DNA of 64,000 bases from Sipunculus nudus (Eukaryota > Annelida > Sipuncula > Golfingiida > Sipunculidae), in the NCBI GenBank assembly GCA_026874595.1, contig CM049308.1, positions 91,083,624 through 91,147,623 of the forward strand, given 5' to 3'. Below the pieces are notes generated by a model. That model searched no databases, had not been told where the DNA came from, and saw only the letters and a list, made by a program, of their open reading frames with translations. This document shows, one piece after another, positions 8,604-61,406 of the stretch. Both the position numbers and the translations under genes were made by a program. Each line of letters opens with the position of its first letter. The stretch's first letter is position 1.

Positions 8604-8721
8604 TTTAAACTGTGTATGTTTTGTTAGCTGACTAGTCTATTTAATTAAACCATACTTGATAATAATAACTATATAAATGAAAAGAAATCTCACCCTTAAA
8701 AATCCAAATCTAATTCAAATT

Positions 8722-10706
8722 AAAACTAGACGACCATAGGTCGAACGCTTGCCGGAAATTGGAAGTGAAACACAGACGGACAAACAGAACATATTGTCGG
8801 TTTTCTATTAATGGAATGACTCTCAGGGACATTGCTGAGAATATGTGGCCCGTTGAATGACATATGAAACAAAAGAACAGGCAAGCAGACAAAGCTGACA
8901 ACAAAAGACGAACAGACAGACATAGTGACTTAGTGAGACAAGATTGACACCAGATGACATAACCTAGTGACTGAGAAGATTCAAAGGAAGAAAATGATTT
9001 ATGTAATTTAGATTTATAGTTTTGGAGGTCTGGCGAATTAATGATAAACTTGGGAGGCTCGACTGTAGCGCCCTCTAGCAGACATATTCCCAAGACGACA
9101 AATGCGTTTCGTATTATTAGTGTATGACATGAGATGTCCCAGTTTCAAAAGGATTCCTTCAAAGCTGTGGCCTGTAGAATGCTATATGTAAGGCGTAAGA
9201 ACCAGCAAGCAGGCGACTTTGAGGATAACGGACAAACAGATGGACACACTGACAAAGTGACAGAAGATTGAAACCAGATGCCTTAATCAGGTTATGGAGA
9301 AGACTCAAAGGAAGAAAATAAGCTATAGTTTATGTAACTGAGGCTTTGGGTGTAGAGATATGGCCAATACAATGGTATGTGTGTGAGGGTCGTGTGCAGC
9401 GCCCACTAGTGGCCATATCCGGAAAATGAAAAATTTATTTCTAGATATTAGTGTAAGACATAAGATGTAATAGTTTCAAAAGGATTCCGTCAAAGCTGTG
9501 GCCTATAGAATGCTATATGTGAGACGCAAGAGCCAACAAGCAGGCGAATTTGAGGACAACTGACAAACAGACGAAAACACTGACAAAGTGACTCAAGATT
9601 GAGTCCAGATGACTACTCCAGGTTATGGAGAAGACTCAAAGGAAGAAAAAAAGCTACAGTTTATGTAACTGAGGTTTATAGTTTTTGAGATATTGCCAAA
9701 GCATGATATGTTGGGAGAGGTTCGAGTTCAGCGCCCCCTAGCAGCCATATCCGGAAAATGAAAAATTGGTTTCGAGATATTAGTGTAAGACTTAAGATGT
9801 AATAGTTTCAAAAGGATTCCGTCAAAACTGTGGCCTGTAGAATGCTATATGTGAGACGCAAGAGCAAGCAGGCGAATTTGAGGACAACTGACAAACAGAC
9901 AGACACACTGACAAAGTGTCACAAAATTGTGACCAGATGACTACACTAGGTTATGGAGAAGACTCAGAGGAAGAAAATAAGCTATAGTTTATGTAATTGA
10001 GGCTTATAATTTTGGAGATATGGCCAAAATATGATATGTTCGGGAGGTTCGCATCCAGCGCCCCCTAGCGGCCCTATTCAAAAAATGAAAAAACTATTTC
10101 GAGATACTAGTGTAGGACTTATAATATGTCAGTTTCAAAAAGATTCCTGCAATAATGTGGCCTTTGGCGCAAGATGAATGAAATCTCGAAATATCTCTAT
10201 TCACGAGATATTTTACGAGATACTGCAAGACTTGTAATAAAATCTTGTAGTACTAGTTGAATGCTACCTGATGCAAAAAACTAGATCACTCTAGCTTTAA
10301 AACTGACAAAGCTAGAAAAATAAGACCCCTTATTTTCGAATATCATGACTTTTCCCCTAAAATGTGTAACCATGGTTACGGCAAATTTGAGTCAGCTACA
10401 CACCAGATGACAGGCCTTGGAATGACGATTAAAATAAGCTATTGTTGAAGTAGATACGACTAAAAGTCACAAAGATATGAAGAAAAAAACGTTTTGAGAA
10501 CTTTTGACGACCTTGACCTTGACCTTTGACCTATTTTAACCAAAAACAATAGGGCACCTAGAAATTATGTTTTTGATCATCCCTGTAAGTTTCAAGGTGA
10601 TTGTGGCAAAATTGTGGCCAGGAGAGTGCAGACAAACAAACAGACAGACAAACAGACATACGCAACTGACCAACATGCTTGCCGAAATCTTTGATTCCGG
10701 CAAGCA
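8722..10706 (-). mobile_element. Hairpin-ended tandem-repeat element, family D (HINE-like)
   Basis: Read on the minus strand, the element starts at about 10706 with a hairpin (arms 10705-10698 and 10684-10677, GCTTGCCG/CGGCAAGC). Next come a GTCT/GTTT-rich stretch (10661-10630), a TGACC-rich segment (10531-10500), and a tandem array of about 330-bp units. Then follow the matching inverted repeat CCGGCAAGC (8755-8747), a short hairpin (CGACC/GGTCG, 8743-8731) and the terminus TCTAGTTTTA (8730-8721). The 9-bp subterminal inverted repeats at 10697-10705 and 8747-8755 are perfect. This order matches what is described for non-autonomous Helentron-type elements. No protein is encoded. Confidence 0.65.
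8790..10180 (-). repeat. Central tandem array of family D, about four 330-bp units
   Basis: The phrase TTTCAAAAGGATTCC recurs near 9146, 9475 and 9806, with a variant near 10133, giving a period of 327-332 bp. A partial, more diverged unit starts near 8790. Each unit holds a GCGCCC(A/C)CTAG.GGCC block and a GACAAACAGA stretch. Confidence 0.85.
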
Positions 10707-10716
10707 ATAAACAATG
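10706..10716 (+). repeat. 5' target-site duplication of the LINE
   Basis: AATAAACAATG here is repeated exactly at 14363-14373, after the A-rich tail of the LINE. It directly abuts the 5' hairpin of the family D element. Confidence 0.8.
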
Positions 10717-13700
10717 TTAAATGTGTCTATTACAGAGAGGGTAGATTTGTCATTTTAAATGCCTATATTCAGGAATGTCCATTTTTATTAGTCAATGTTT
10801 ATGGCCCAAACAGTGAGAAAGAACAAGTGCAGTGTTGCCAAAAGATATGTAAAATAATTGAAAAAGGATTTGACATAGACTTTTAATACTCAAATTATCT
10901 GCGGAGAAGACCTGAATTTCTGTTTCTCCCCCTTGGATGCTCAAGGTGGTAATCCAACATTCAAATATAAAACAATTGACTCTGTAAAAACAATACTTCA
11001 AACATATGATCTGTGTGATATATGGCGACTACGTAATCCAAATATTAAAGGATTTACTTGGAGGAGATTAAACCCACTTACACAACGCAGGTTAGACTAT
11101 TTTCTTATATTAGTGACTTTACAACCCTGTGTCACAAACTGTGAAATTATACCTTGTGTGGGAACAGACCATTCAACGGTACTATTTAGACTTTGTTCTT
11201 TTGAAATGCCAAAAACATGGGCCATCTTACTGGAAATTTAATCATTCATTAGCTGAAGACACCTTATTTATAACCAAATTAAAAGATTATATACAATTAG
11301 TGAAACATAAGCTTTTCATACAAATATGAATGCTAAAACCAAGTGGGACTATTTAAAATATCATATAAGATAATTTGCAATAGCATACTCAAAAGAAAAA
11401 AGCAAAGCTAACAGAATAAAGAGGATGAACTTAGAAAAAGAATTGGAGCAGTTAGGAAGTAATATTGGAGAGTGCAATGAAAATAGTATTATTGAAAAAT
11501 ACAAAGATTTCAAGCAGAAACTTGAAGAATGTTATGATCTGATAACTGAGGGCATAATTGTTAGATCCAGAGCTCAGTGGTATGAGCAGGGTGAGCGCAA
11601 CACAAAATATTTCTTAAATCTTGAAAAGAGAAATCATGAAGTGACAGTTATAAAAAAATTAATAGTATACAGGGTCTGTAGAAACAATGGATCACAACAA
11701 AATAATGTCGCATATTCATGAAAATTATATGCAAAGGTTTTCAAGATCTTCAGATGTCACCTCTGAGGAATGTGATAAGTTCTTAGAAGGTATTTATGGG
11801 TTACCAGAACTAACTGAAGATGAGTCTTTGAAGTGTGAAGGTAACATCACTGTCACAGAGGTACTTGAATCCTTAAAAAATAATAAAACACCAGGGAATG
11901 ATGGAATAACAAAAGAATTATACTTGAGTATATTTAATGAAGTAGATTTTGAAATGACTGCTTGTTTAAATGAAGGGTATCATTCAGGAGAATTATCAGA
12001 GAGCCAAAAACAAATAGTTATTAAGCTTTTAGAAAAACCTGGTAAGGACAAAAGATGTATAGAATCCTGGAGAACAATAAGCTTAATTAATGTTGACTGT
12101 AAGGTGTTAAGTAAAATTTTAGTTTCAAGATTGCGAAAGGTTTTGCAAATATTGGTCCACTCAGATCAGAATGCTTTTGTTCCAGGCCGCTATATCGGAA
12201 ATTCAGTTCGCTTAATCAGTGATATGGTGGAATATTTTCATACAGAAAAGCATGAAGCAATTATTTTTGGAGCTGACTTTAAAGCTGCTTTTGACTCAGT
12301 AGATCAGGTCTTCATGTTAAGTGTTCTAAAAAACTAGGCATTGGCCAGTGTACATTATCTGGATAAAAACTTTGCATAATAACATGAAAAGCTGTGTTAT
12401 TAACAATAGTTTTACAACACCATACTTTTTGTCTAGGGGTACTAAACAAGGGGACCCAATATCCCCCTATTTGTTTATATTAGTTTTAGAAGTGTTAACA
12501 CATCAAGTTCGTATAAATAAAAATATCCAAGGAGTCAATGATTTTGCATATGAACTAAAACGGACATGTTTTGCAGATGACATAACTTTTTTTCATCAGG
12601 AACACAACTTCATTTTAACATTTAATTAGCACCATAAATGTGTTTTCACAAATTTCTTCCCTGCAATGCAATTATAATAAATCTGAAGCAGCCTGGATAG
12701 GTGCAAGTAAGCATAGTACACTAGAACCAGTTCCATGTAAATGGGTTAACTTGACAAAAGGAGCAATTAAAACTCTTGGCATCTGGCACTCATATGATAA
12801 AGATATCAGTAGGAAACTTATTTTTGATAATGTGAGAGAACAATTGAAAAAAATCTTTATTGTGTGGTCAAGCAGAAATTTAACATTTTTTGGAAGGACA
12901 GAAATTTGTAGAAGATTAGCTTTATCCAAAGTAATATACGTATGCAATATGCATGTACCACCTCAGTCATTCATAGATATAATTATTGTTATAATTGAAA
13001 AAAACCCAAGGTCAGATATAGTATACTGATAGGACCATACCATAAAGGTGGTATAAACTTTGTAGACTTAGCCAGCAGATTGTAAACTCAAAGAATTATT
13101 TGGATTAAAAGGTTGATTCTGTGTAATAGTGCTTATGCATGGAAAGCAGTACAAATGTTTTATCTTGAGAAAATAGGTGGAGTTGCCAATGTGTCATCAA
13201 ACTTTGAATACCATAGAATACCTTCTAAGATACCAGGCTTTTATAAACAGTGTTTGGAAGATTGGTCACAATTTGTTTCAAAAGATCCAACCATAAAAAA
13301 TGAGGTAAAACTGCAACCTCTGTGGAACAATAGGTGGATTAAAGTGGATAAAAAGTCAGTGTATTGCAAACATTTTGGACTCGTTTGGAATAAGGTTTGT
13401 AAAAGACTTTGTATCAAATGAAGGAAAAAAGCTTATATGGTATGACTTGATTAAAAAATATCCAGATATTAGAACAGGAGTCTATCTCAAATGGAGATCT
13501 GTATTAGCTGCAATACCATGTAATTGGCTAAAATTATTGCGAGACGAGGATATCAAATCTAATGAAGGTATATCAGAGGAGCATATAATAATTAAAACTA
13601 AGGGTATTACAAATATACAATCTTTATCTTCTAAATATGTTTATGATCTGCTGGTGGAAAAAAAATTAACTCAACCGTGATCATTGGTCAAGTTAAGACA

Positions 13701-14362: not shown

Positions 14363-14373
14363 AATAAACAATG
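14363..14373 (+). repeat. 3' target-site duplication of the LINE
   Basis: AATAAACAATG, identical to 10706-10716. Confidence 0.8.
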
Positions 14374-25144: not shown

Positions 25145-25321
25145 TATTGTCGGTGTTACGATATTTACGGTATTTCGGTCTCAAATATGGACCGTTAAAT
25201 TTTCCCCTGCCGACAAATTATACTTTAATATTTCAGGTATATAATATTTCAGGTATAATTGCTTAGCTATGTGCATTAGTAAATAAATGTGTAAAAGTTA
25301 CTTATCATAAGTTCAACAAAT
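25145..25321 (+). repeat. 160-180 bp dispersed repeat, copy 1
   Basis: Matches 32263-32422 from TATTGTCGGTGTTACGAT to AAGTTCAACAAAT, with a short internal duplication of TATAATATTTCAGG that accounts for the extra length. Its right end falls within a few bases of where LINE coding sequence resumes (about 25325). Confidence 0.85.
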
Positions 25322-25324
25322 ATT

Positions 25325-27798
25325 TTTCAAATATATTATAAAGATGAGAGCTCGTTAAGGGATTTAGACCCTTTGGCCGGACTACCACTCCTAGAAGTCC
25401 TAAAAATGAACCTCTACCACGCCTGCACGCTTCTTCAATTCGTCCATTAATTTTTAGACCTCCATGTAATAAAACGCCTAGATGTTTAACTTCGCGCTTC
25501 TCTTCAAGTTCGTGATAACCTAACCTAAAACTTCTAAGCTTAACATTTTTTATGTGTGTCCGGTCATTTTCACCAAAAACAACTACAACTGTTTTCAATG
25601 GGTTAAAATTAAATCTCCATGCACAGCTGAAGTCCCAACACCAATCATTTTTTGCAACCCTGATCGAGATGGTGATAATAAGCAAATGTCATCAGCTTGC
25701 ACAGGGCATCCAGTGTATATGGTTCCTAAGTAGGTCCCTAATTTAGAATTACGCAGATCTCTGAGCAAAGAATCAATGAATATTAGGAAAAATAAAGGAG
25801 ATAACACGTCACCTTGACGGACTGATTGTTTAACAGGAAGCCAGTGACTTATGTAACCTTCAAATAAAACAGCGCTGTACATGTCACAATACGCATCATA
25901 TAATAATCGCCAAAGAGCACCAGAAAGACCAAATTCACATAACCTTGTAAACAAACCAGCGTGCCACACCACGTCAAATGCTTTTTGAGTAAATCCGAGA
26001 ACCACCATTAACATAATGGGAAATTGTCTCCTGAACTATTAAGGATGCATGAATGGATGAACTATTTTTCTGGTAAGCACACTGTAACGGATCCGGAAAT
26101 AGCTTGCCAGTGACCGACAGTTTTTTTGTAATCATACCTAGAATAACTTTTTCGAGAAGTTTATAAAAACTGGAAAGGAGAGTGATCCCTCTATAGTTGT
26201 TTGGATCAGACCCTGAGCGGTTTCCACTTTTTGGTATGGTAATTACCATCCCCCTTTTCATCTGACCAGGAATCATTCCAGCAGAAAATGTTAAATTGAA
26301 CAAATTAGTAATATGCTGTGTCAGCAAGGGCCCGCCATAGATTAGATGCTCATTACTGATGTTATCTATTCCGGGTGCTTTTCCCTTGCCTAACTTCATG
26401 ATTTCTTTATAAATTTCTGAAAGTGTGATTGGTTTGTCCAATATAATGCAAAAGTTTTTATTAGAAATTTTAAAGTACTCGTAGAGCCTTTCCTCTGTGT
26501 TAGCTTTATGATTAGCATCAAAATGTGGACATTACAGAGGATCATACAGAGCTTCAAAATAACTTGCCCAGCCGTCGGCGATTGCTTGGGGATCTCTAAT
26601 TACAGCAGAATCAGAGAAACGCATTTCTGCCTGAATGCAGTTACGACGTTTACGTCGGCTTTTTACTTTGTGCCAGAATTTGTTAATATCAACATCTGAA
26701 TCAGAATCAAGTTGTTAAAAGAATAATCGTTCATTGTTTTCGTGATATTGTCTCATTTGACACCTGAAAGCACGCTTTGCCTTTTTATATTCTACATATG
26801 AATGGTGCGCATCACCCCTTGGACGACCATCTGCAATCCACAGTCTGCGTTTTATTTGCATGATATTATGCCAGGTTTAAGTTCTGAGTGCCAATTTGGC
26901 TTCAGGTGTTTATTAAACCTGCGCTGACGAATATTTATCATGGAGGTTTTCAGAATTGCTGTTACGAGATTATCATAATAGCCACTTACTGCAGCACTCG
27001 TAGCTGATCTACTGTCAGGCACTTGAATTCTGCTTAGCCTTTCCCCTAAGGGAGTACAGTACAAATGACTTAAACTTGCTTTATCAAATCTCTCCCAGTG
27101 GAAATTAACCCTTGTATAAATTGGTTTGCCATAATGAATAGTACATGATCAATTAATGACTTATTTGATCCAGACAAATAAGAACACCGTGGGCCGTGTA
27201 TTGGCAGTTCTGAAAAAATAGAACACAATGAACAATCTTCAACATAGGAGCCCAGTAACGCAGTCCGGATATCCTCGCGTGCATTGTAATATTTGCCCTT
27301 AACTTCAGCATTAAAGTCCCCCATCATTAAGACCATACCAGACGAACTTCAACTATATTCATAAAATAGATTAAACAATATATCGAGGTGTTCAGAAAAG
27401 CTGGAAACATCACTTGAAGAGCATGGTTAGTAGGCATTGAAGAGAGATAATGTAGTATTGCATTTCAAAGTTAGTTACAAACCTACAACACGATCACCGA
27501 GATCATCACGAACAATTGGCTTAACAGATGCCCTCACACTTTTGCACCACAGGAGGGCAACCCCTCCTTTACCTCTCCGGTGAGAGCAATACGGATCAAG
27601 ACTAGTATCAGATATACCGTGATACATATAATCATGGTGAAGAGACCCTAAAAAATACATATTATCCTCAAACAGCCAGTGTTCAGATATACCAAGTATA
27701 TCGATGTTGTTAACTTCAAGTAAATTACTGACATATAATGCAGAAGGCATTAAACCTCTAACGTTAAAACAAGAAATGTTGAGAATTTTCATATTCAT
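25325..27798 (-). pseudogene. LINE ORF2: APE endonuclease and reverse transcriptase, broken
   Basis: Endonuclease: LNISCFNVRGLMPSALYVSN, NNIDILGISEHWLFEDN, GKGGVALLWCKSV (27798-27475), then MMGDFNAEVKG, and SLIDHVLF (27336-27070). Linker 27064-26852. Reverse transcriptase: MKLGKGKAPGIDNISNEHLI, MKRGMVITIPKSGNRSGSDP, NNYRGITLLSSFYKLLEKVI (26441-26080), KAFDVVWHAGLF (motif A), SVRQGDVLSPLFFLIFIDSL, CPVQADDICLLSPS (catalytic ADD preceded by Gln), FNPLKTVVVVFG, KHLGVLLHGGLKI and PLTSSHLYN (to about 25330). Stops and frameshifts fall near 27475-27336, 26850-26441, 25990 and 25640. The region normally found after the thumb is absent. The order and spacing are otherwise near full length. Confidence 0.85.
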
Positions 27799-27870
27799 TT
27801 GAAAAGAATTAATTTAAATGGCTGTACACAGGAGAGAAAAAAAAAGAATATGAATTATTGGCTCAGTTCG

Positions 27871-29580
27871 TTAAGTAAAGGTACCATAGGAGCCAGTTCT
27901 TGTCCTTGAAACAAACACTCGAGTCTCGTGTAGCCCTGTATCATTCCTGGGCCACCATCTGCGAATATACACATCCCCAGGCCAAAACTGCGCTCTTGTT
28001 ACCACTGGAATGGACGACCAATGCACCTCAATAAATGCCCCGATTCTTCCACGATTTGTGTTGGTCAGCAATCGGAGTTGTTTTAACTGTACGCCTCGAC
28101 TGCACACATAGCCTTCAATGTCACGATACGATGTGTTTTGTCTAATATTACCCAGGTTAAATTTACCTGTACGAACGAAAGTGCTTTCCAGTGGATCAGC
28201 ATTGGACACATCACGATATTGACTAACATTGGCCCCAACAGATGGATTACCATTATTAAAGGAGGGCACATGAAATCCACGATTCACATTCCGACCTTGA
28301 CCCGTCGTTATCCTTACAGGAATTGTAGAGCTTGGTCGCTTCAGCTCTACAGATGTGACGTCTCGTCCAGGAGACTTGAGTTACTGTCGAATGTGAGGGA
28401 ATCTTACGGTTCTCAGGTGGAGAAGATATAGTGATCGGATCAGCAGCTGCAGAATCTGGTTGCTCCGGGGAACCATGTATTCTCGGGGATGTATGTTCAT
28501 CAGACAAAACAACATTTGCAAAAGACAGGTTATTTGTTTTTTGGGGGGGGACTTGATGGTATATCTGTCAATTTCCCTCGGATATATGTTAGCGAATTAG
28601 AAATGCAATCGACTTTAATATTGTACATGTTTTATCTCACTATCCCGATCTTTCTCTGAATTCTTGTGCCTTCTCCGATCGGCTTTAAGATTGCTAGTTT
28701 CATCTTCTAGGTCTTTCACTTTCCTCCTTAACCGTTCACATTCCGCATCAGCTGATAACAATTTAAATTCTAGATCTTTGACCTTCTCATGAACAATAGC
28801 CAGCTCATTCTCTAATCTATCAACTTTCTCTTTTGAGTGCTCTTCCACACCAGCTAATTCCGTCCGGAAAGACTTTAACTCTGATCTGCATCTGTTCTGT
28901 AAATTTGACAACTCTGTAGACTTTAACTCTATTTCCTGTTTGAAAAATGCAACACTACTTTCTAACCTCGCCTCACTGCTGACGACTGTACCTCTCAATT
29001 CTTCTATTAAAATCCGGAGTTCAGACAGCGTGTTTGTAAACAACAGCATTTGGTTTTTGTTTCCTATGCAAGCGAACTCACTATCATGAGCACAGTCAGT
29101 ACACCCAGTCGGAACTAAAGGTTGAGAAGTAGAATCAGTGTTAACCGTCGAACGACAGGAAACCGAACCCTGCCTGTAACCTGGTTTCTGATGAAAATCT
29201 CCTTTAAATCTTCAGTTTCTCCATTTTCGATGAAATTGCCCAAGATATAACATTCTTTGGCTAACTTTAAATGGTTGATGTCTTTTGATCAAGGTTCCTG
29301 ACGGAAAACCTTCAAATTCAATTGCGCTGCTAAACAAACTGTTTCTCAGCCATTCCAGCCATTTCATATTATTTATTGAATAATTGACAAGTTTTGCTAA
29401 AAAAAACTCCTTAGGAAGACTACATATATCCTGAAGGAGAATTTCGGCACTATCTTGTTGGTTACAGGCTTGATTTAAAGTAAAATCTTCAAAACCCAGA
29501 TTATCGTCATTATTGACCAGGTCTAATGAGCGAGCGATAATGTCTGCAGAACTGCCTAAATTGTCCGACAAATTATCCAT
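27871..29580 (-). pseudogene. LINE ORF1: coiled-coil protein with RNA-binding-like C-terminus, broken
   Basis: ORF1 proteins bind element RNA. The start is taken as the ATG at 29580 (MDNLSDNLGSSADIIARSLD). Residues continue to HRKWRN and a stop (29212). A Cys pair follows in another frame (CTDCAHDSEF, about 29095). A strong coiled coil occupies 29049-28640 (RLENELAIVHEKVKDLEFKL, ECERLRRKVKDLEDETSNL). A low-complexity Ser/Pro-rich part lies at 28507-28380. The C-terminal part (28287-27871) contains GYVCSRGVQLKQLRLL, GAFIEVHW and FWPGDVYIRRWWP, similar to the RRM-like folds of many LINE ORF1 proteins. At least two frame changes are required. It lies about 70 bp upstream of ORF2. Confidence 0.7.
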
Positions 29581-29599
29581 CGTCTTATGTGGAAACGCA

Positions 29600-31390
29600 C
29601 AGCAGTCTATTCAAATCAAGGCTATGAGCATGCAGCGTAAACAAACAGAACTGACCTTGAATTAGAACTTGCATGAATGAACTTGCGGTCACGTTAAGTC
29701 AAAGACCAATGAAGTCACATGACATAACATCTGTCACCCTCTAGGGCGCGGAATATGTGCGGAAGGTGAGCGATAATTCAATGAGTTTGCGGATGAGGAT
29801 TTTTCAACTTACGTTTTCCGAGAAACACAAAATATAAGATCACGTGCTCTCCAATAAGGTCCGTTAACGGTATACAAGGCTTTCACACAACGCGTCTCGT
29901 AAGTCCAAAAACTATTAGAACACATATAATTCCACGTAGTTTATACATTTTGTGGTCCAGGAAAATATTGAATGCTCACCTTCGCGCATGCGCACCCCCG
30001 TATATATATATGCATTTGTTCCACCACACCTTTAACACAATACAAGAGATTTGGGACTTTCATAAAAAATATCTATGTCATATATGCATTTAAATTTCTT
30101 CTTGTTTACACATCTTTCTTCCTGTGTAAAAACAGGGTACTTCCTAGTACAACATCAATATACATGCAATATTTGATAATAATTTTTACTTCAGTTTCAA
30201 ATCTGTATTATTCAATAATTTTCTCAGTTTATTAAATTTTATATAACATACTTGATATATAATTAATATAAATTAATAATTTATTGTTTGAATACTGTAG
30301 GGTATTGACACTAGTTTGATTATTATTATTAATTTCAATTGGAAAACTGATTTGACAAAACAAACTTTCAATATTTATAAAATCTCTGCTTGAGCAAAAC
30401 ATACTTAGCAAGACTTCCTTTAATGTTTATAAAAAAATGAGTTATCACCCCCCCCCCCCCACCCCCCACCATACAGCATGTCTTCTTTTACCTGTATGGA
30501 AGTAATACTTTTTACGTTGTCTTCCTTATTTTTTTGTTGAAACTGCACCCTAGGTGATAAACAAATATTTTAATAACTGTTACTTTGTTGTTTTTCAAAT
30601 TTGTTCTACTTGACTAGAACAAAGTGTTTATTTTAACCAACCGCTCGGGTGTCATGGCTGATGCGATTAGTTCAGCTGATTAGTTCTCTGACACCCGCCG
30701 TATCGATCAGAAACAGCCGCAAATTTATCAAACTTCTCAATTTTATTGTTAAAACATCTGTGTAGACTCCATATGTACACTTTCAACCTAAGGGTGCGTT
30801 CTTTGTAAAATTAATACTGTTTGAAGTCTGGTGCGATGTGCGGCTGAAGTGCCGGTTCCACGTGTACAAACAACACGCTTTCTTGGTTTAATGTCCTACC
30901 TAGCAACCGTTTCCAAGGTGGGCGAGCTAACTGGTCCGAAATATTATAATCTAACACATATTCCAGCAAAATTGCTTATCAAAGACTAGCTGATAAACCC
31001 GGTATACCGGGCTTATTACCGGGGTTGGGGAGATAAATTATTGAGATGTGGAATGTTGGCTCATTTTTTATTCTAAAATGTAACGAAAATATAGGTTTTC
31101 ATTGGGAAACTGTCTCAATAAGATATGTAATAATAATTTTACATTTATTTTGTTGCGCTGTGCTCGTGGCAAGAATTTCATATCCCGGTATGTTTACCTT
31201 GAAGACCTGGTCAGTGATAATGTTTACATTTCGAGACGGAATGAGACGCGGGGGCATTCCGGTTTTCGATGATATTTGACTGGATTCTATCGTTGGACGT
31301 ATAAAGATAAGGTTGATGTGAGGAACACATGAAAGATTTATTAAATGTACGTTGCAAGGTAACTGTTCCTGAAGAAAAAAAAAACAAAAC
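29600..31390. other. No supported gene
   Basis: Includes a C run (30448-30470) and an AT-rich stretch. The first few hundred bases may include the 5' untranslated region of the LINE. Nothing else recognised. Confidence 0.45.
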
Positions 31391-35241: not shown

Positions 35242-38200
35242 AGCTCAGCTGACTGAAAGTCATCTGAGCTATAGCGATCACTCTTTGTCCGTCGTCCGTC
35301 TGTCTGTCTGTCCGTCTGTCTGTCCGTCTGTCTGTCCGTTAACCAGGCACAAATCGTAACCGCTAGAACTGGAATCTTCTTACTTGACATCCTGGGAGGT
35401 CCATGAAAAATCTCCTTGGAAACCAGAAATTAGGTCTCTGTTACCCATATCCTTCGAGAAGTACCCCCCAGAAAAGTCAAAAATTTCATACAAAAACTTC
35501 AATATCTCATTAACTACTTGACTGATGGTCATGATTTTTGGCTTACATATTGATCATGAGAGGTTCCATCAGTTCCTGAAGACTGGTGGCGCCACCTGTA
35601 TTTTTCGATTTTTTACGATTTTTTTTTCTCTATTTTTGAGACCTTTAAAAATGTGAACATCTGTTAACAAGGCACAAATCGTAATGACTGGACTTAGAAT
35701 CTTCATTCTCGACACACTGAGAGACCTATGAAAAGTCTCCATGGAAACCAGAAATTAGGTCTCTGTTACCCATATCCTTCCAGCTATGGGGCCCCAAACT
35801 ACCCCCCAGAAAAGTAAAAAAATTTCAAACAAAAACTTCAATATCTCATTAAATACTTGACTGATGGTCATGATTTTTGTCATACATATTGATCATGAGA
35901 TGTTCCATCAGTTCCTGCAGACTGGTGGCGCCACCTGTATCGTTCAATTTTTTACGAATTTTTTTCTCTATTTTTGAGACCTTTCAAAATGTAAACATCT
36001 GTTAACAAGGCACAAATCGTAAAGACTGGACCTAGAATCTTCATTCTTGACACACTGAGAGACCTATAAAAAGTCTCCATGGAAACCAGAAATTAGGTCT
36101 CTGTTACCCATATTCTTCGAGCTATGGAGCCCCAAAGTACCCCCAAGAAAAGTAAAAAATTTCATACAAAAACTTCAATATCTCATTAACTACTTGACTG
36201 ATGGTCATGATTTGTGGCATAACTATTGATTATGAGATGTTTCATCACTTCCTGCAGACTGGTGGTGCCACCTTTATTGTTCGATTTTTTACGATTTTTT
36301 CCTCTATTTTTGAGACCTTTAAGGATGCTGTCATCTGTTAGCATGGCACAAATCGTAACGACTGGACCTAGAATCTTCATTCTTGACACACTGAGAGGTC
36401 CATGAAAAATATCCTTGGCAACTAGAAATTAGGTCTCTGTTAACCATATTCTTCGAGCTATGGAGCCCTAAAGTACCCCCAAGAAAAGTTAAAAAATTTC
36501 ATACAAAAACTTCAATATCTCATTAACTACTTGAATGATGGTCATGATTTGTGGCATAACTATTGATCATGAGATGTGTCATCTGTTCCTGCAGACTGGT
36601 GGCGCCACCTGTATCGTTCGATTTTTTACGATTTTTTCCTCTATTTTTGAGACCTTTAAGGATGCTGTCATCTGTTAGCATGTCACAAATAGTAACGACT
36701 GGACCTAGAATCTTTATTCTCAACACATTAGAAGACCTATGAAAAGTCTCCATGGAAACCAGAAATTAGGTCTCTGTTACCCATATCCTTCGAGCTATGG
36801 GGCCCCAAAGTACCCCCCCAGAGTAGTAAAAAATTTCATACAAAAACTTCAATATCTCAATAACTACATCACTGATGGTCATGATTTTTGGCATAGATAT
36901 TGATTATGAGATGTTCCATCAGTTCTTGCAGACTGGTGGCGCCACCTATGTTATCTATCAAGAGGGTACAAATTGCAACAACTGGACCTAGAAACTTCAT
37001 TCTTGTCATGCAAGGAGGCCCATGAAGAGTGCCTGTGGAAACTTGAAATTAGGTCTCTGTTACCCATATCCTTCAAGCTATAGGACTCTGAAGTATCCCT
37101 CAGAATAATGGACAATTTGATACAAAAGCTGAAGTATCTGAACAACTAATACGGAGATCATCATGATTCTTTGCATGGATATTGACCATTAAGTGTTTTT
37201 AGCTCAGCTGACTGTAAGTCATCTGAAGTATCCCTCAGAATAATGGACAATTTGATACAAAAGCTCAAGTATCTAAACAACTATTGCAGTGATCACCATG
37301 ATTCTTTGCATGGATATTGATCATGGAATGTGTCATCAGTTTCTGCAGTATGGTGGCGCCACCTGTATTATTTTTATTTTTACGAATTTTTTTCTCTATT
37401 TTTGAGACCTCATAAGATGCGGTCATCTGTTAACATGGCACAAATCGTAACAACTGGACCTAGAATCTTCTCTCTTGACTTGCTGAGAGTCCCATGAAAA
37501 GTTTCCTTAAAAACTTGAAATAAGGTCTCTGTTACCCATAACCTCTGAGCTATGGGGCTCCGAAGTACCCCCCAGAATAATGGAAAATTTGATACAAAAG
37601 CTCAAGTATCTGAACAATTATTATATTGATCACCATGATTCTTTGCATGGATATTGATCATGAAATGTTTCATCAGTTTCTGCATTCTGGTGGCGCCACC
37701 TGTATTTTTTCAATTTTTAGCTCAGCTGACTGAAAGTCAACTGAGCTGTAGGGATCACCTTTTGTCCGTCGTCCGTCCGGCCATCCAGGCGTCTGTCTGT
37801 TAACAGGGCACAAATCGTAACCGCTAGACCGGGAATCTTCTTACTTGAAATCCTGGGAGGTCTATGGAAATTCTCCTTGTAAACCTGAAATTAGGGCACT
37901 GTGACCTATATTCTTCGAGCTATGGGGTTCTGAAGTACCCCCCAGAATAATGCAAAATTTAATACAAAAGCTCAAGTATCTGAACAACTAATGCATTAAT
38001 CACCATGATTCTTTGCATGGATATTGATCATGGAGTGTTTCATCAATTTCTGGAGATTGGTGGCGCCACCTATATTTTTTTTTTGTTTTTTACGATTTTT
38101 TTTCTCTACTTTTGTGATCTTTAAACATTTGGTCATCTGTAAACAGGGCACAAATCATAATGACTGGACCTAGAATCTTCTGTCCTCACCTCCAGGGAAG

Positions 38201-38920
38201 CCCATAAAAGGTCTACATGGAAACCCGAAATAAGGTCCCTGTTACCCATATTCTGTGAGCTATGGGGCTCTGAAGTACCCCGCAGAATAAAGATTTGGTC
38301 ATATATTAACAGGGCACAAATCATAATGACTGGACCTAGAATCTTCTTTATTCACCTCCAGGGAAGCCCATAAAAGGTCTACATGGAAACCCGAAATAAG
38401 GTCCCTGTTACCCATATCCTTCATGCTCTGGGGCTCCGAAGTACTCCCCAGAATAAAGATTTGGTCATCTGTTAACAGAGCACAAATTATAATGACTTGA
38501 CCTAGAATCTCCTTTCTTGATATGCTGGGAGGCCCCTGAAAAGTCTCCTTGTGCACCTGAAATTACATCTCTGTTACCCATATCCTTCATCCTATGCGGC
38601 TTTGAAATACCCCCCCAGAATAAACATTTGGATTTGTTAACAGGGCACAAATCATAATAACTGGACCTAGAATTTTATTTTTTGACATGCTGGGAGACCC
38701 CTGAAAAGTCATCTTGTAAACCTTGAAAATAGGTGTCTGTTACCCATATCCTTCATGCTACAGAGCTCCATAGTACCCCAATGAATATTGGATGATTTTA
38801 TACAAAAGGTCAAGTTTGGAAAAAGTATTTCATTCAAATTTGACATTCAGATGATAAAATTACTTTTGTCAATGTCTTCCTGGTCAGCTGAGCGTCATGA
38901 CCCCTGGGTCACTTGTTTTA
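35242..38920 (+). mobile_element. Hairpin-ended tandem-repeat element, family A (HINE-like), with nested heads
   Basis: The 5' hairpin pairs AGCTCAG (35242-35248) with CTGAGCT (35264-35270), with further pairing inside. A (GTCT/GTCC)n stretch at 35288-35339 follows, then about 12 tandem units. The 11-bp sequence GCTCAGCTGAC (35243-35253) has its exact inverted partner GTCAGCTGAGC at 38883-38893. This is followed by a hairpin (TGACCC/GGGTCA, 38898-38911) and the terminus CTTGTTTTA. Additional head sequences (TTAGCTCAGCTGACTG) at 37198 and 37718 show that two more copies were nested or fused inside. The second of these has its own GTCC stretch (37764-37800). No protein is encoded. Confidence 0.7.
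35348..38660 (+). repeat. Central tandem array of family A
   Basis: The anchor CACAAATCGTAA or close variants occur near 35348, 35673, 36011, 36347, 36684, 36967, 37438, 37809, 38149, 38314, 38480 and 38645. Spacing is mainly 325-340 bp in the first part and 165 bp in the last three steps. Each long unit also has TACCCCCCAGA, TCAATATCTCATTAACTA and GGTGGCGCCACCTG. The 165-bp units have lost the half that carries the GGTGGCGCCACC palindrome. Confidence 0.9.
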
Positions 38921-50054: not shown

Positions 50055-50786
50055 TTTTTAGCCCTCAGCCCTTATGCTGATGGGCTATTGTCGTCACCCA
50101 AGCTGTCCGTCCGTCCGTCCGTCCGGCGTCCGTTAACTTTTACCTTGTGAGCGGGATATCTTGAAAAGGATTCACCGTCAGAATTTTATTTCCTTGGTAA
50201 AGATGTATATTGACAAAATCTCGGTCAAGTTGGAAGATGGATGACCTTGACCTATTTTTCTACGTTTTAGAGCTGATTATAGAAAAAAACTTTTAGAAGC
50301 TTATTTCTCAGGAACCATTGGGTGGATTTTCATAATACTTACTATGATCATAGGGACTGATGGTCTGTAACTGCTGCACAAGTTTGGGGGCGCCACCTGC
50401 AATTTCTTATTTTTAATGAATTTTTCTTCAATTTTTCAACTTTGGCTTTGTGAGCGGGATATCTCTAAAAGGATTCACAATAGGAATTTTATTTCTTTGG
50501 TGAAAAGGAATATCGACACAATCTCGGTCAAGTTCGAAGATGAGTGACTTGACCTACTTTTCAAGGTCACAGAGCTTATAATAGAATAAAACTTAGAAGC
50601 TTATTTTTCAGGAAGCAGTTGGTGGATTGTTATGAATCATGGTGCATACCTCTCCATTTAAATTTATAACTGAGACATGTACATCCATGTGAGAACAGAT
50701 ATTTATTACTTGTTACTGTTACCACCTCTAAACACTGTTCTTTTGGCTGAGGGCTTTTGTCAGCTTCTGCTGATATTCTAGTTTTT
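50055..50786 (+). mobile_element. Hairpin-ended tandem-repeat element, family C (HINE-like)
   Basis: The 5' hairpin pairs AGCCC and TCAGC (50060-50069) with GCTGA and GGGCT (50076-50086). A (GTCC)n stretch follows (50105-50124). The array holds about 1.6 units of about 304 bp (anchor GTGAGCGGGATATCT near 50147 and 50451). AGCCCTCAGCC (50060-50070) has its exact inverted partner GGCTGAGGGCT at 50745-50755. Then come a hairpin TCAGC/GCTGA (50760-50773) and the terminus TATTCTAGTTTTT. This is the shortest and cleanest example of the shared architecture. Confidence 0.7.
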
Positions 50787-50789
50787 CTC

Positions 50790-52740
50790 TGGTATTCGAC
50801 CAAACGCGCCAGGTTCACGAATATCCCGAACAATGTGTTAAGCTCCCGCAACTGGTTGAGGAAACGCAGTCTTTCAGCGGGGTCATCTGTAGGCCACTCG
50901 CACGCCTTTTTTCCTGTTATTATACTCCATGTAAGAAGCGAAAATGTGCCATCCGGCCCATTCTTACAGTTCGTAGCCTTCCAGAACGATGTATCCTTTC
51001 TTCCTGAGCCTTGACTCGTGGTTTGCACCATGATCCCGAAACCTCCCTCGTCTGGTTAGAGCCCACACTGGTTGAGGAGTTAGGCGCATGTCGCGCTCTA
51101 TGGAAGCCATGTGGTATATGTTCCTCATATCCCTCTTGAGTGTGACCCAAAGTAATAAATGGGAGACCAAGATCAAATATACCAGTATTCGATACAATCC
51201 TGTGATTATCATTGCAAGGTTAGGACACTACAATTAAGGCAAGTAAAACCCCCATGACATGGCCTGGAGGGTAATATTATCTCCATACGTCACTGACCGG
51301 GAGATGTTTAAGGTGTAGTTTTCTAAAAACAAAATGTTCGTTTTCACAGAAATTTAAGTAGAAACTTTTGAACATGTCTGATAGCAGACCGACGAAGCGT
51401 TCTCCTTTTCTTAATTGCCCAAAATACTGAGCTGGATGCAAAATATTTGCAATAGCTGTTATGCCTCTATATTATTTTTCTAACAAGATCCATCTTTCTC
51501 AGGAAACAAGTGGCGATGTGATTGGGTATTTCATCAGAATCTTCTCTACTGGTTCATATTCAGAACAGAATGCCTCAGTTCCTCTTTTCTTCTTCATTTT
51601 GTCACATCTATTTGAACATTCCGCAGCGCGTTTTCTTATTTCGTCAGAATATGGTACACCCTACCATGATACAAAGCAAAGGGTATAAGATAAACCAACA
51701 TCTCCTTTGGCTCTGTGTCTAAGCATATGGAATCTTCGGAAGGCACGTTACCAAACTAATAACCCAGGGATTTCTTAGGTAGCAGAACTTACGCTTTCTC
51801 TTGATACATACATTTTTCTTCCGATTTTGACTAGCGACTGTAGGTAATATGGACAACTATTTGGTAGACCTCCTTTGAACTTGGTGCCATAACCGAAATG
51901 AATGATTTTGGGATGTCCGTGTTAATATAATACATGTATACCTTCCAGTGCATTATGTTTTTAGGGGGCCTTGTTGTTTAGAGAGGAAGGTATATATTTA
52001 AACATTGTACATAACACTCATTATGTACTAGTATGTAGTAGCCTGACAAGATACTGATCTTTTCTCATGTGGACAGGGTCGATTTGAAGTCGTTCAAAGA
52101 CTTCTGATGTTTCTATCGATTTCATGGAAGTTTCTTAGTAAATTTTGCAAGGGAGTGCGCTTCATTTTATTCATATTATTATTCCGCTCACTGCTTGCAG
52201 GAATAATCCCTTTTAAGTTTGTAATACACGAACCTTTTGCCGGATTCAATATATCATTTTGCCTCTTTCAAAACTTTCCTTCCGAAAGTCTGACTCAATG
52301 ATGACATTTTTTCATGGTGGAACAGAACTTCTTTGTTTTCACCAACTTTTAATGTCATGTCTTTTTGAATAAGCCAAAAGTGTACCAGACCTTTTTCTGC
52401 TACTGTTCTTTTCTCAAAAGGCACTTGAAACTTTCCTTCCAGTAACCGAACGAATAGTTTATACCTACCATGGGAGAGAGTACGAAGTCCCTGTTTTCGT
52501 ACTCGTTTTTTCTTGTGTGAGGCCATCAGATCATGGCCAAAGTGCACAGGCCCTTCTCCCAAGAGGTCTTCTTACTGCTGTGAGTGGTACATCTTCAGGA
52601 AATTACGGATGAAGTGCTCGAGGTCATCTTCCGACTGTACTTTTGGTTGGAAGTCGGCGTCTGCAGGCGCGGGTGGTTCTCTTTGTACATCATTTTCATA
52701 ACCATCGTAATCATCGCTGAGATATACAGCATGTATGATA
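50790..52740 (-). pseudogene. Coding-like relic of unknown family
   Basis: Minus-strand segments with protein-like composition, in order: EPPAPADADFQPKVQSEDDL, EHFIRNFLKMYHSQQ, stop, EGPVHFGHDLMASHKKKRVR, KLFVRLLEGKFQVPFEKRTV, HFWLIQKDMTLKVGENKEVL (52690-52254); GVPYSDEIRKRAAECSNRCD and KKRGTEAFCSEYEPVEKILM (51665-51510); HMASIERDMRLTPQPVWALT, ESRLRKKGYIVLEGYEL (51130-50964); and, after a frameshift, GTFSLLTWSIITGKKACEWP, LRFLNQLRELNTLFGIFVNL (50960-50800). The last segment ends against the 3' end of the family C element. I cannot name the family. One stop and one frameshift argue for decay. Confidence 0.35.
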
Positions 52741-54214: not shown

Positions 54215-55100
54215 ATAGATCTATGGACATGCACAATTTCAGGCCATTAAAGCAAATGCCTCCTGAGGAAAGGACATTAATTTATTCTACAAAAATGGGG
54301 AAGTAGGTCGCGCAACCCGCCTGTTTTACGAGAAAACTTTCAAAGATGGATGGACATGCTAGATTTCAGATCAATACCTTGAACCACCCCTGAGATGAGC
54401 ATTTTTTTTTACGCCACGCAAAAACGACTGCAGATGACGCCACCATTCTTGTTAACAAGATGGCGGTGTCAAGGATCTATGGACACGCACAATTTCAACC
54501 CAATGCATTGAAGAACCACTAAGAAGATAATATGGGAAATGCACAGATGGATGCTACGCAAAAATTATTGCAGGTGGCGCCGCCTGTCTTTGTTACGCAC
54601 AACTACATAGGTGAAGGAACAACTATGTCTGGTTTCGGAAAGATCGGTCCAAGGGTCTCAAAAGAGTTCCCCGGAAACGAACGAGGTGGCGGCGGTGGAA
54701 CCCGCGCAGAAACCTCTTAAAACCTTAAAAATGGACCTCTTTAGACGTCAAGTATGAAGATTCTAGGTCCAGCGGTTACGATTTGTGGCCTGTTAACACA
54801 TTTGAAGGTCTCAAAAATAGAGAAAAAAATGCATTAGGCATGCAAAGAATCATGGCAATCTATGCATTAGTTATTCACATAGTAGAGTTTTGTATCATAT
54901 TTTTAATTATTCTGTGGGAGCCCCATAGCTCAAAGGATATGGGTAACTAATTGTAGATTTCCAAGAAGATTTTCCATGGACCTCCCTGGATGTTAAGTTA
55001 GAAGATTCTAGGTCCAGTGGTTACGATTTGTGCCCTGTAAACGGACGACGGACAAAGAGTGATCGCTATAGCTCAAGTTGACTTTCAGTCAGCTTAGCTT
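54215..55100 (-). mobile_element. Reversed, degenerate copy of family A element
   Basis: The 5' hairpin lies at 55099-55070 in reverse (AGCTAAGCTGACTGAAAGTC start), followed by GTCCGTCGTCCG (55053-55040) and family A units with the anchor CACAAATCGTAAC or close variants near 55030 and 54790. Beyond 54600 the units change to about 120-140 bp ones sharing GAT.TATGGACA.GC and GCAGGTGGCGCC (near 54215, 54338, 54475). No 3' inverted repeat or terminal hairpin was found, so the far end is uncertain. Confidence 0.6.
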
Positions 55101-56165: not shown

Positions 56166-56171
56166 CAATCA

Positions 56172-56273
56172 CAGGTTAGAGGGACGTATTTCTAAACCCT
56201 ATATATTATCATATTAGGTGCACATGTTGGGTGTACTCGAAAAGTTTTTTTCTATCGAGTGTTTGGCATCATG
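56172..56273 (+). repeat. Dispersed repeat, copy 2
   Basis: Diverged copy of 18111-18212 with the same block order. Confidence 0.7.
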
Positions 56274-58055: not shown

Positions 58056-58059
58056 CAAA

Positions 58060-58965
58060 CGCTAGTGCTTGTACTAAAGAATGATGCCTCTGATGCCTGT
58101 GCAATTAGGAGAGAGAGCTAAGTGAATCACTGTTTTGCTGTGATGCCTGTGTAAGTACAGATGTTGTCTATTAGTCTGTCGGAATTATCACAGGGTCTCA
58201 TATATATATATTTTTTTTATTTATCAGTTCGATCTGGAAGAGTTCCGTCGTTATTAATCGCTCTACCAGGCCAATATGAGCTCTTGATCATGGGAACAGG
58301 GTATAAGACATATTTAAAATCTCACTTTTTTTGCTGCTGGATTGATAAAAAGGCTATTTAAAATTAAATCCCTAAATCTTACCTGGCATATCGTTAAATA
58401 CATAAGAATATTTTTTCTGCAGGATATCCGTCACTAGATTTTGTACTGACAGCGATAAAATGTGAAACTTATGATTAGCAAAAAATAAATAAACGTTTTG
58501 TATCTTGGAAAAAAATCTCTGATTTGTAACTTGAATATATTTTAGTTTAATGCGGCAATCTGGTCGCAGGCAAGTAACTAAAAAAATACAAAGGTAACAT
58601 GCTTTCTCTAGGTGCTTAACCATCACCAAATGATGAACAGGCATAATATCCTGGCGAAGAAAAGACAAAATGTAAAAACCTGGTGTGCTTAAGAGACGGG
58701 GTATACATGATACTCCTGATAATTAAAAAAAACTCCTTTTCAAATTTTATAAACGTCGACCAAAATCAGGCATTTTACACACACACGCACAATAACATAT
58801 AAAGCTCTCTATATTTATATTAATACATTTACATATTGATACATAGAGATAAATTAATAATAACTAATATATAAAACTATGGAGATTATATTGCGTATAA
58901 TATATAACTACAGAGCAGATTACTCCATATTTCTTAAAAGTATACATATATGTAGATGTATGTGT
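58060..58965. other. No supported gene
   Basis: AT-rich, with a short TA/T simple repeat near 58200-58220. Confidence 0.4.
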
Positions 58966-58967
58966 AT

Positions 58968-61406
58968 TTTTATGCCCCCGCCACAAAGTGGCCGGGGCAT
59001 ATAGTTTTACCCATGTCCGTCATTCCGTCATTCCGTCCTTCCGTCATTCCGAAATCAAACAGTTGTACGGACTTTTTTTTCGCAATGCCTGCAGATATTG
59101 GCCTAATGTTTGGTGTGTGGGCAGATATAGACCAGTTACAGATCGAATTCGCGTTTCGTCCCGTTGACCTACTTTTGACCGTTTTACGGCTCCTAAACTC
59201 AGAAAATTTCATGAAAAATAGAAATATTCATGACAGATACACATGTACGGACTTTTTTTCGCAATGCCTGCAGATATTGGCCTAATTTTTGGTGTGTTAG
59301 CAGATATAGACCAGTTACAGATCAAGTTCGCGTTTCGTCCTGGTTGACCTACTTTTGACCGTTTTACGGCTCCTGAACATAGAAAATTTCATGAAAAATA
59401 TGAAATTTCATGACAAATACACATGTACGGACTTTTTGTCGCAATGCCTGCAGATATTGGCCTGATTTTTGGTGTGTGGACAGATATAGACCAGTTACAG
59501 ATCGACTTCGCGTTTCGTCCCGGTTGACTTACTTTTGACTGTTTTACGGCTCCTAAACTTAGAAAATTTAATGAAAAATAGAAATATTCATGACAGATAC
59601 ACATGTACGGACTTTTTTTCGCAATGCCTGCAGATATTGGCCTGATTTTTGGTGTGTAGGCAAATATAGACCAGTTACAGATCGAGTTCGCGTTTCGTCC
59701 TGGTTGACCTACTTTTGACCGTTGTACAAACATAGAAAGTTTCATGAAAAATAGAAATATTCATGAAAGATACACATGTACAGACTTTTTTCGCAATGCC
59801 TGCAGATTTTGGCCTTATTTTTGGTGTGTGGGCAGATATAGACCAGTTACAGATCGAGTTCGCGTTTCGTCCTGGTTGACCTACTTTTGACTGTTTTACG
59901 GCTCCTAAACTTAGAAAATTTCATGTAAAATAGAAATATTCATGACAGATACACATGTACGGACTTTTTTTCGCAATGCCTGCAGATATTGGCCTAATTT
60001 TTGGTGTGTTAGCAGATATAGACCAGTTACAGATCGAGTTCGCGTTTCGTCCTGGTTGACCTACTTTTGACCGTTTTACGGCTCCTGAACATAGAAAATT
60101 TCATGAAAAATATGAAATTTCATGACAAATACACATGTACGGACTTTTTTTCGCAATGCCTGCAGATATTGGCCTGATATTTGGTGTGTAGGCAAATATA
60201 GACCAGTTACAGATCGAGTTCGCGTTTCGTCCCGGTTGACCTACTGTTGACCGTTGTACAAACATAGAAATTTCATGAAAAATAGAAATATTCATGAAAG
60301 ATACACATGTACAGACTTTTTTTCGCAATGCCTGCAGATATTGGCCTTATTTTTGGTGTGTGGGCAGATATAGACCAGTTACAGATCGAGTTTGCGTTTC
60401 GTCCTGGTTGACCTACTTTTGACCGTTTTACGGCTCCTGCACATAGAAAATTTCATGAAAAATATGAAATATCATGACAAATACACATGTACGGGCTTTT
60501 TTGCGCAATGCCTGCAGATATTGGCCTGATTTTTGGTGTGTGGCCAGATATTGACCAGTTACAGATTGAGTTCGCATTTCGTCCTGGTTGACCTACTTTT
60601 GACTGTTTTACGGCTCCTGAACATAGAAAATTTCATGTAAAATATAAATTTTCATGACAAATACACTTGTACAGACTTTTCTTCACAATACCTGCAGATA
60701 TTGGCCTGATTTTTGGTGTGTGGGCAGATAATGACCAGTTACAGATCAAGTTCACGTTTTGTCCCAGTTGACCTATTTTTGACCGTTTGCGGGGCTCTAA
60801 CATAGAAAATTTCATAAAAAGATGCATATGTATGGACTTTTTTTCGCAGTGCCTGCAGATACCAACCTGATTTTTCGCAATGTATGGCAGATAATGACCA
60901 GTTACAGATCGAGTTCTTGTTTTCTCTCAGTTGACCTACTTTTGACCATTTGACTGCTCCTGAACATAGAAAGTTTCATGAAAAATATAAATATTCATAA
61001 CAAAGCATATGTACTGACTTTTTCTCCTCAATGCCTGCAGATACCACCCTGATTTTTTATGTGTGGGCAGATAATGACAGTTACAGATCGAGTTCGCGTT
61101 TCATCCCGGTTGACCTACTTTTGATTGTTTTACGGCTCCTTAACATAGAAAATTTCACGAAAGACAGAAATTTTTATGGAAAATGCACATGTATGGACTT
61201 TTTTTCACAATGCCTGCATATACTGGCATGATTTATTGTGTGTTGCTTGATAATGACCCGTTACAGATCGAGTTTGCATTTTGCCCTTGTTGACCTACTT
61301 TTGACCATACGACACCTCCTGAACTTAAAAAAATTTTCAAAATTTTACAAATGTTTCTAATTTGCCCAAGGCGGGGGCATTCGTGTCGTTCCGACACATC
61401 TAGTTT
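58968..61406 (+). mobile_element. Hairpin-ended tandem-repeat element, family B (HINE-like)
   Basis: The 5' hairpin has arms 58972-58984 and 58988-59000 (ATGCCCC.GCCAC, loop AAA, GTGGC.GGGGCAT). GTCCGTCATTCC-type short repeats follow (59015-59050), then about 13 units of about 180 bp. ATGCCCCCGCC (58972-58982) has its exact inverted partner GGCGGGGGCAT at 61370-61380. Then come a hairpin GTGTCG/CGACAC (61383-61397) and the terminus ATCTAGTTT (61398-61406). All hallmarks of the shared plan are intact here. Confidence 0.75.
59063..61370 (+). repeat. Central tandem array of family B, about 13 units of 180 bp
   Basis: Units start GTACGGACTTTTT (or variants) near 59063, 59245, 59425, 59606, 59777, 59957, 60137, 60308, 60488, 60668, 60828, 61008 and 61191. 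They contain GCAATGCCTGCAGATATTGG, ACCAGTTACAGATCGAGTTC and TTGACCTACTTTTGACC. Units starting at 59606 and 60137 share the same 12-bp deletion (ACCGTTGTACAAACATAG), showing a three-unit duplication of about 531 bp. Units after 60668 are more diverged. Open frames across the array are artefacts of repetition. Confidence 0.9.

What the first reader, a model, noticed from the sequence alone, without database searches (positions are those of the whole stretch)
8721..61406. Four unrelated repeat families share one terminal plan: 5' hairpin, GTCC stretch, tandem array, inverted repeat, 3' hairpin, CTAGTTTT
Seen directly: families A (35242-38920), B (58972-61406), C (50060-50786) and D (10706-8721, reversed) each have a 9-11 bp perfect subterminal inverted repeat whose left copy is also the left arm of a 5' hairpin. 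Each then has a GTCC/GTCT-rich stretch, a central array (180-340 bp units), the inverted partner, a separate 3' hairpin 2-6 bp further on, and an end of CTAGTTTT (B, C, D) or CTTGTTTT (A). The inverted-repeat sequences differ between families, so the plan is conserved while the sequence is not. Subterminal inverted repeats, a 3' hairpin near the end and central tandem repeats are features described for non-autonomous Helentrons (HINEs); bivalve 'Pearl' elements also combine a tetranucleotide stretch with tandem core repeats. That all four use one replication machinery is inference.
Basis: partly seen in the sequence, partly recalled or inferred. Interest (0 to 1): 0.9.

Follow-up and report, generated by a model that had tools for sequence, protein, structure and literature searches.

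The report
HINE transposons with orientation domains
The four repeats are non-coding rolling-circle transposons of an already described kind (HINEs), but on the chromosome stretch examined three of the families point the same way as their neighbours over tens of kilobases, which, if it holds, says something new about how such elements choose a DNA strand.

Summary
The anatomy is real: all four window copies have an 11-of-11 subterminal inverted repeat, a 5' hairpin built on its left copy, a GTCY tract, an array and a 3' hairpin. Fetched copies confirm both ends for B and C and the 5' end for A; D's 5' end shows only in match coordinates. C enters T-runs with only 1-2 extra T at three empty sites. 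This is the published HINE plan (oyster Cg_HINE, PMC7492417; PMC4067079), so the elements are new members of a known kind. Corrections: trailing TTTT is mostly target, B reads CTAGTTTA, A is composite, and A and C arrays are homologous. The genome holds Helentron-type Rep genes, but I could not tie their ends to A-D.

New: on contig C1 (0-26.9 Mb) A, B and C insertions agree in strand with a neighbour of another family in 64 of 72 pairs within 50 kb, about half beyond 200 kb. T-runs (12 of 25), a chance 11-mer (16 of 33) and D (8 of 16, few places) do not follow. I read this as insertion polarity set by a local strand asymmetry (replication or transcription). It rests mainly on one chromosome stretch; recursive nesting is not excluded.

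The parts
35242..38915 (+). Family A element, composite (second complete 5' terminus at 37719, degraded one near 37202); ends CTTG, then TTTT
35242..35270 (+). A 5' hairpin: 7 bp, C x T mismatch, 5 bp, 3-nt loop; holds left subterminal repeat 35243-35253
35286..35339 (+). A GTCY tract
35338..36947 (+). A array, 337-bp unit (a second array of 166-bp units at 38122-38760)
38883..38893 (+). A right subterminal inverted repeat, 11 of 11
38898..38911 (+). A 3' hairpin
58972..61403 (+). Family B element; ends CTAG, then TTTA
58972..59000 (+). B 5' hairpin, same dot-bracket as A (7 bp, C x C mismatch, 5 bp, 3-nt loop); left repeat 58972-58982
59064..61306 (+). B array, about 180-bp unit
61370..61380 (+). 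B right subterminal inverted repeat, 11 of 11; 3' hairpin follows at 61383-61397
50060..50781 (+). Family C element; ends CTAG, then TTTTT
50060..50086 (+). C 5' hairpin (5 bp, one-base bulge, then 6 bp and a 4-nt loop in the common sequence; one pair lost in the window copy); left repeat 50060-50070
50745..50755 (+). C right subterminal inverted repeat, 11 of 11; 3' hairpin 50760-50773
8726..10708 (-). Family D element; ends CTAG, then TTTT
10675..10707 (-). D 5' hairpin: 14 bp with one G.T pair, AAA loop; left repeat 10695-10705
8907..10163 (-). D array, 331-bp unit
8747..8757 (-). D right subterminal inverted repeat, 11 of 11; 3' hairpin 8731-8743

Best explanation
A, B, C and D are four families of non-autonomous rolling-circle elements of the Helentron-associated (HINE) kind. 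Shown: fixed ends in many copies (both ends for B and C, the 5' end for A), insertion of C into T-runs with 1-2 extra T and no other duplication, high copy number, and nested insertions of one family into another. Inferred: a Helentron Rep-helicase supplied in trans nicks next to the 5' hairpin, a single strand is peeled off, the 3' hairpin plus CTAG marks the end, and the strand is joined into a single-stranded T-run. The 11-nt left arm can pair either with its local right arm, which is imperfect in all four families, or with the perfect 3' partner; I suggest that this choice brings the ends together (inference). The local agreement in strand of A, B and C would follow most simply if the target strand is chosen by a local strand asymmetry (inference).
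For: Ends: 8 of 8 A and 20 of 20 B loci, and 12 of the 17 C loci whose 5' end aligned (20 held), have TTTTT immediately before the element. 20 of 20 C and 11 of 11 B 3' ends are followed by T. Empty sites: of 28 joined flank pairs, three C insertions (L052, L053, L055) had uninterrupted paralogues in another held locus, differing by 1-2 extra T at the junction; for L055 the comparison is with other units of a B array. The other 25 had none. Genome counts: C 3' end 1092 exact; A 5' hairpin with a GTA loop 3440, and at least about 31,000 A sites at up to 1 mismatch (61,941 strand matches; the motif nearly equals its reverse complement, so exact sites count twice); B 5' hairpin 2824; D 1144, some in tandem. 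Helentron-type Rep: 143 PF14214 matches, seven of the listed frames over 2200 aa; the script read the motif in 26 of 30 held Rep loci, 24 of them with the Helentron GSPH signature, L010 GLPH, L035 GWPH, and none in L009, L018, L031, L037. Orientation.
Against: No Helentron with A-D termini was seen. A TT duplication cannot be told from insertion inside a T-run. The main texts of the two HINE papers name CTAG only for proto-Helentron-Pi; CTAG after a hairpin, next to T, is Helitron-like (PMC4778049, passages). No D locus was fetched, and A's 3' end was seen elsewhere only in diverged A-type copies such as L045 and L055.
Confidence: 0.88

Rival explanations
1. Orientation concordance comes from recursive nesting: HINE arrays carry T-runs mainly on one strand, new copies land in old arrays in the same direction, and clusters grow.
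For: Nested cases exist: C in a B array (L055), C inside an A-type element (L045), and 3 of 20 B loci (L062, L063, L064) start right after A's GGTGGCGCCACCTGTATTTTT or a variant of it. Within 1.5 kb, HINE-like sequence is 9976 bp same against 486 bp opposite, and covers 11% of flanks against 0.5% of Rep loci.
Against: At 11% coverage of the flanks, solid clusters of 20-50 kb are not seen, yet concordance is 27 of 29 at 5-20 kb and 27 of 32 at 20-50 kb. The 11% is a lower bound because BLAST misses old copies.
Confidence: 0.25
2. Orientation follows gene direction through selection in introns.
For: Domain size (tens of kb) is of the order of genes with long introns (recalled).
Against: Selection on intronic elements is usually modest (recalled), while 27 of 29 would need about 96% polarity. 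Gene direction was not tested: the splice-site word CAGGTAAGTAT was not enriched over its reverse (1085 against 1055).
Confidence: 0.25
3. A-D are canonical Helitrons.
For: 3' hairpin followed by CTAG and a flanking T (B, C, D), as in Helraiser (PMC4778049, passages).
Against: No 5' TC, insertion not between A and T, and subterminal inverted repeats present.
Confidence: 0.06
4. They are satellite fragments or ordinary MITEs with chance hairpins.
For: Arrays look satellite-like, and MITEs also carry inverted repeats (recalled).
Against: Fixed ends in independent insertions and empty sites without a clear target duplication.
Confidence: 0.02

Closest known systems
Cg_HINE elements of Crassostrea gigas (PMC7492417; abstract, Results and the first part of the Discussion read, further passages)
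   Same: 5' subTIR with adjacent complementary IR, GTCY microsatellite, satellite-like array in fixed orientation, 3' subTIR, palindrome, T-rich TT insertion, no TSD; several families with unrelated sequences.
   Different: Here A and C have related arrays with different subTIRs; subTIRs are perfect in the four window copies (1 mismatch prevails in most Cg_HINEs). Its passages on orientation say only that insertions occur in both orientations.
HINE-Mo and DINE-1 (PMC4067079; abstract, first of three parts of Results, section 9 and passages read)
   Same: subTIRs, 3' palindrome, T-rich target, no TSD. By its rule (11 bp identical subTIR defines a family) A-D are four families.
   Different: Helentrons with the same ends were found there; not here. 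Its main text names CTAG once, for proto-Helentron-Pi.
Pearl elements of bivalves (known here only through the discussion in PMC7492417 and recall)
   Same: Core repeats of about 160 bp in short arrays.
   Different: No Pearl sequence was compared here.
IS200/IS605 and Tn7 (PMC5371812; passages read)
   Same: Element orientation follows replication direction, through single-stranded lagging-strand targets for IS200/IS605.
   Different: Bacterial; a link to replication is not shown here.

Membership tests
HINE (non-autonomous Helentron) | subterminal inverted repeats of about 11-15 bp | tested here: met
   11 of 11 in 4 of 4 window copies
HINE (non-autonomous Helentron) | palindrome near the 3' end | tested here: met
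   5-6 bp stems, ending 0-4 nt before CTTG or CTAG (sequences)
HINE (non-autonomous Helentron) | T-rich target, no target-site duplication | tested here: met
   C: three empty sites, 1-2 extra T, so a TT duplication is not formally excluded. A and B: T-run flanks only. D: match coordinates only
HINE (non-autonomous Helentron) | no coding capacity | tested here: met
   three frames of 109-144 aa in B and D: no Pfam match over cut-off. No frame of 100 aa lies within A; one overlaps C's edge (50630-51055) and matches no Pfam family
HINE (non-autonomous Helentron) | autonomous Helentron with the same ends | tested here: inconclusive
   143 Rep matches; ends not reached in the elements followed; none of 30 held Rep loci, 1.5 kb on each side, carries A-D ends as its own
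Helitron (canonical) | 5' TC | tested here: not met
   A, B and C begin with A after a T-run; D also, in its window copy
Helitron (canonical) | 3' CTRR after a hairpin | tested here: met
   CTAG in B, C, D; A has CTTG, which is not CTRR
Helitron (canonical) | insertion between A and T | tested here: not met
   T on both sides for most copies

The most novel reading that the evidence does not exclude
HINEs in this animal insert with a strand polarity fixed over domains of about 50-150 kb and shared by three families. Eukaryotic rolling-circle elements would thus choose a single-stranded T-run on one strand, either the lagging-strand template (as IS200/IS605 do) or a transcription-exposed strand, and their frozen orientations would be a fossil map of germline fork or transcription direction.
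Probability: 0.4. Interest if true: 0.85.

Novelty: new member of a known kind. Interest (0 to 1): 0.55.

Why it matters
The four families add to a published kind, with thousands of copies each and tens of thousands for A. Open questions for bivalve HINEs are which Helentron drives them and how they choose a target; PMC7492417 says its authors could not relate ten autonomous oyster elements to their HINEs. The orientation domains, if they hold genome-wide, make target choice testable from annotation or replication data alone. A and B share one hairpin shape although 10 of 12 pairs differ on both sides, which fits a machinery that reads the fold more than the sequence; with two families this may be coincidence.

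Tried and rejected
Rejected: (a) a 92:8 strand bias on C1 in the listing. One search lists minus-strand exact sites at 0.35-1.1 Mb that one search leaves out, so that listing is strand-incomplete and was not used for strand. (b) T-run supply as the cause of orientation: unmasked flanks hold 265 T-runs and 262 A-runs of 5 or more in element orientation; T18 runs agree with A/B/C in 12 of 25 pairs within 50 kb, though 7 of 10 within 20 kb. (c) Splice-site word as a proxy for gene direction: not enriched; as a chance word it agrees in 16 of 33 pairs within 50 kb (7 of 15 within 20 kb, 34 of 49 at 100-200 kb). (d) A blind scan for further families with this plan in held sequence gave 22 hits, all of A-D; the reversed control gave 36, mostly B arrays read backwards, so the scan has no power on its own. 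(e) A common 5' template of A, B and C: one search suggested it (4, 2, 3 of 1000 shuffles), but A, B and C had been cut to end in TGTCC and D had not. Without that tail the shuffles reaching the score are A-B 168, A-C 53, A-D 188, B-C 8, B-D 21, C-D 1018 of 2000. Withdrawn except for B-C, whose 3' ends are also alike (1 of 1000). (f) A CTCF function for the arrays: units of A and D were picked by the motif, so its rank (1 of 317 in A, 10 of 319 in D) is biased; the resemblance is recalled and untested. (g) Hairpin imperfection as a selected feature: the base opposite is T in 96, A in 2, C in 1 and G (perfect) in 1 of 100 A sites listed, and C in 69, T in 3, G in 0 of the 72 B sites shown with letters out of 100 listed. 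Founder effect explains this equally well.
Full report
What is there. Each window copy has an 11-nt subterminal repeat whose right copy is its exact reverse complement. Each left copy is also the left arm of a 5' hairpin. A and B fold to the same dot-bracket (7 bp, one mismatch, 5 bp, 3-nt loop) although 10 of their 12 pairs differ on both sides. C and D have a bulge or a G.T pair instead of the mismatch. So in all four the local right arm is imperfect while the distant 3' partner is perfect. By computed energy the distant duplex is the more stable (A -14.3 against -9.6, D -15.3 against -13.5 kcal/mol), though it is treated as two separate strands in the calculation.

Copies. Full-genome DNA searches scored only 40 candidates per query, out of 3153 (A), 2597 (C), 1685 (B) and 3656 (D). 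I hold 8 A, 20 C and 20 B loci, the window copies among them, and no D locus. These are the best-scoring copies, not a random sample. Their ends align at the hairpins. Most of the T-run before the element and the T after CTAG belong to the target. Joined flanks of three C copies find uninterrupted paralogues in other loci, with 1-2 extra T; the other 25 of 28 do not. In L055 the target is a B array.

Relatedness. A and C arrays are homologous: alignment score 313, shuffle mean 134, maximum 201, 0 of 200 reaching it. The A-D score is reached by 1 of 200 shuffles; the other same-strand pairs by 8 to 161 of 200; of the opposite-strand pairs A-B and A-D by 3 of 200 each, the rest by 14 to 61. The ends give less. 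After removal of the shared TGTCC, 5' ends exceed shuffles clearly only for B-C (8 of 2000) and weakly for B-D (21), A-C (53), A-B (168) and A-D (188 of 2000). At the 3' end B-C stands out (1 of 1000); A-D is 28 of 1000. So 'unrelated' is wrong for the A and C arrays, doubtful for B and C, and otherwise stands.

Autonomous partner. The genome has 143 matches to the Helitron-like Rep domain, from 195 candidates of which 150 were scored. Of 30 held Rep loci, 24 show the Helentron GSPH motif, two another form, four none. Five were extended 3 kb upstream. The Rep frame opens 0.9-1.5 kb upstream of the held locus in four (L011, L012, L015, L020) and is interrupted in L019. In the two extended further, L011 and L020, noncoding leader is still alike at the limit fetched. 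Downstream stretches of L012 and L020 do not align with each other and show no convincing A-D end. L036 has a B copy inserted upstream of Rep where L038 has none, one junction seen; this shows B moving into a Helentron, not belonging to it. The link stays open, as it did in oyster.

Orientation. From place lists on contig C1, restricted to 0-26.9 Mb where the A list ends (later B and C rows dropped), pairs of different families among A, B and C agree in strand in 10 of 11 (under 5 kb), 27 of 29 (5-20 kb), 27 of 32 (20-50 kb), 48 of 70 (50-100 kb), 89 of 148 (100-200 kb) and 126 of 255 (200-400 kb); farther bins lie at 0.47-0.52. When each family's list is rotated along the stretch, 0 of 1000 rotations reach the 5-100 kb value of 102 of 131; the single bins are reached by 1 of 998, 1 of 1000 and 10 of 1000. 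With rows to 30.3 Mb (B) and 95.3 Mb (C), A-B gives 25 of 29, A-C 10 of 13 and B-C 20 of 20 at 5-50 kb; at 50-100 kb 25 of 32, 13 of 23 and 10 of 15. Against a simple picture, 10 of 31 mixed clusters hold both strands (21 do not; shuffle mean 9.7, maximum 19). D agrees in 8 of 16 pairs within 50 kb, but six of the eight come from one place at 1.08 Mb; counted by place, D disagrees more often than it agrees, and the sample is small. In the window D is opposite to A, B and C. In the 64 outer flanks of held loci across the genome, HINE-like sequence is in the same direction only in 18 and in the opposite direction only in 5, none in 41; by family 870 against 465 bp for A, 3906 against 0 for B, 5200 against 21 for C. 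Those lie within 1.5 kb, so nesting may explain them. Genome totals are near balance for A (1656, 1784), B (1400, 1424) and C (549, 543), and less so for D (453, 691), whose hairpins are often in tandem. Controls within 50 kb: T18 runs 12 of 25 (7 of 10 within 20 kb); CAGGTAAGTAT, a chance word here, 16 of 33. No non-HINE transposon control could be run.

How it works, and how sure. The strand choice is the new part. Replication direction has a precedent in bacteria (PMC5371812, passages). Transcription and nesting are live rivals. I give the polarity reading 0.4. That A, B and C share one machinery now rests on the orientation agreement alone, since the supposed 5' template did not survive; the odds above were set on the orientation data and are unchanged.

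Literature. Nine of ten searches used. Searches looked for Helitron orientation or strand bias; in the rows listed (8 of 235, 10 of 517, 8 of 8, 6 of 6 papers) no title or abstract start reports orientation domains for Helitrons or Helentrons. I read listings there, not the papers, apart from the passages named. Most subscription journals are not in that library. The organism was not identified.

Noticed in passing
window 35585-38071 (A), 50398 (C), 9076-10066 (D): An AGRKGGCGC core occurs 7 times in A, once in C and 3 times in D, and once outside them at 54572. The likeness to the CTCF core is recalled, not tested.
   Followed up: partly
L075, first 950 bases (reverse strand): About ten copies of an A-type 3' end, mostly at a 50-bp period, as if 3' ends had been repeated by rolling-circle read-through.
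   Followed up: no
G000 C1:64-67 Mb: D 5' hairpins cluster here and often lie about 60-150 bp apart in tandem; the A, B and C lists show no such spacing.
   Followed up: no
L079-L083 with L012, L019, L020: The N-terminal part of the Helentron frame holds tandem units offset by 69 bp, whose number seems to differ between copies.
   Followed up: no
window 10879-13680 (+) and 25305-29610 (-): Remains of non-LTR retrotransposons: RVT_1 (E 2.7e-12) in the first, Exo_endo_phos (E 4.5e-6) in the second.
   Followed up: no
window 54731-55099 (-): HINE-like array fragments on the strand opposite to A, B and C, about 4 kb from both C and B: a local exception to the concordance.
   Followed up: no
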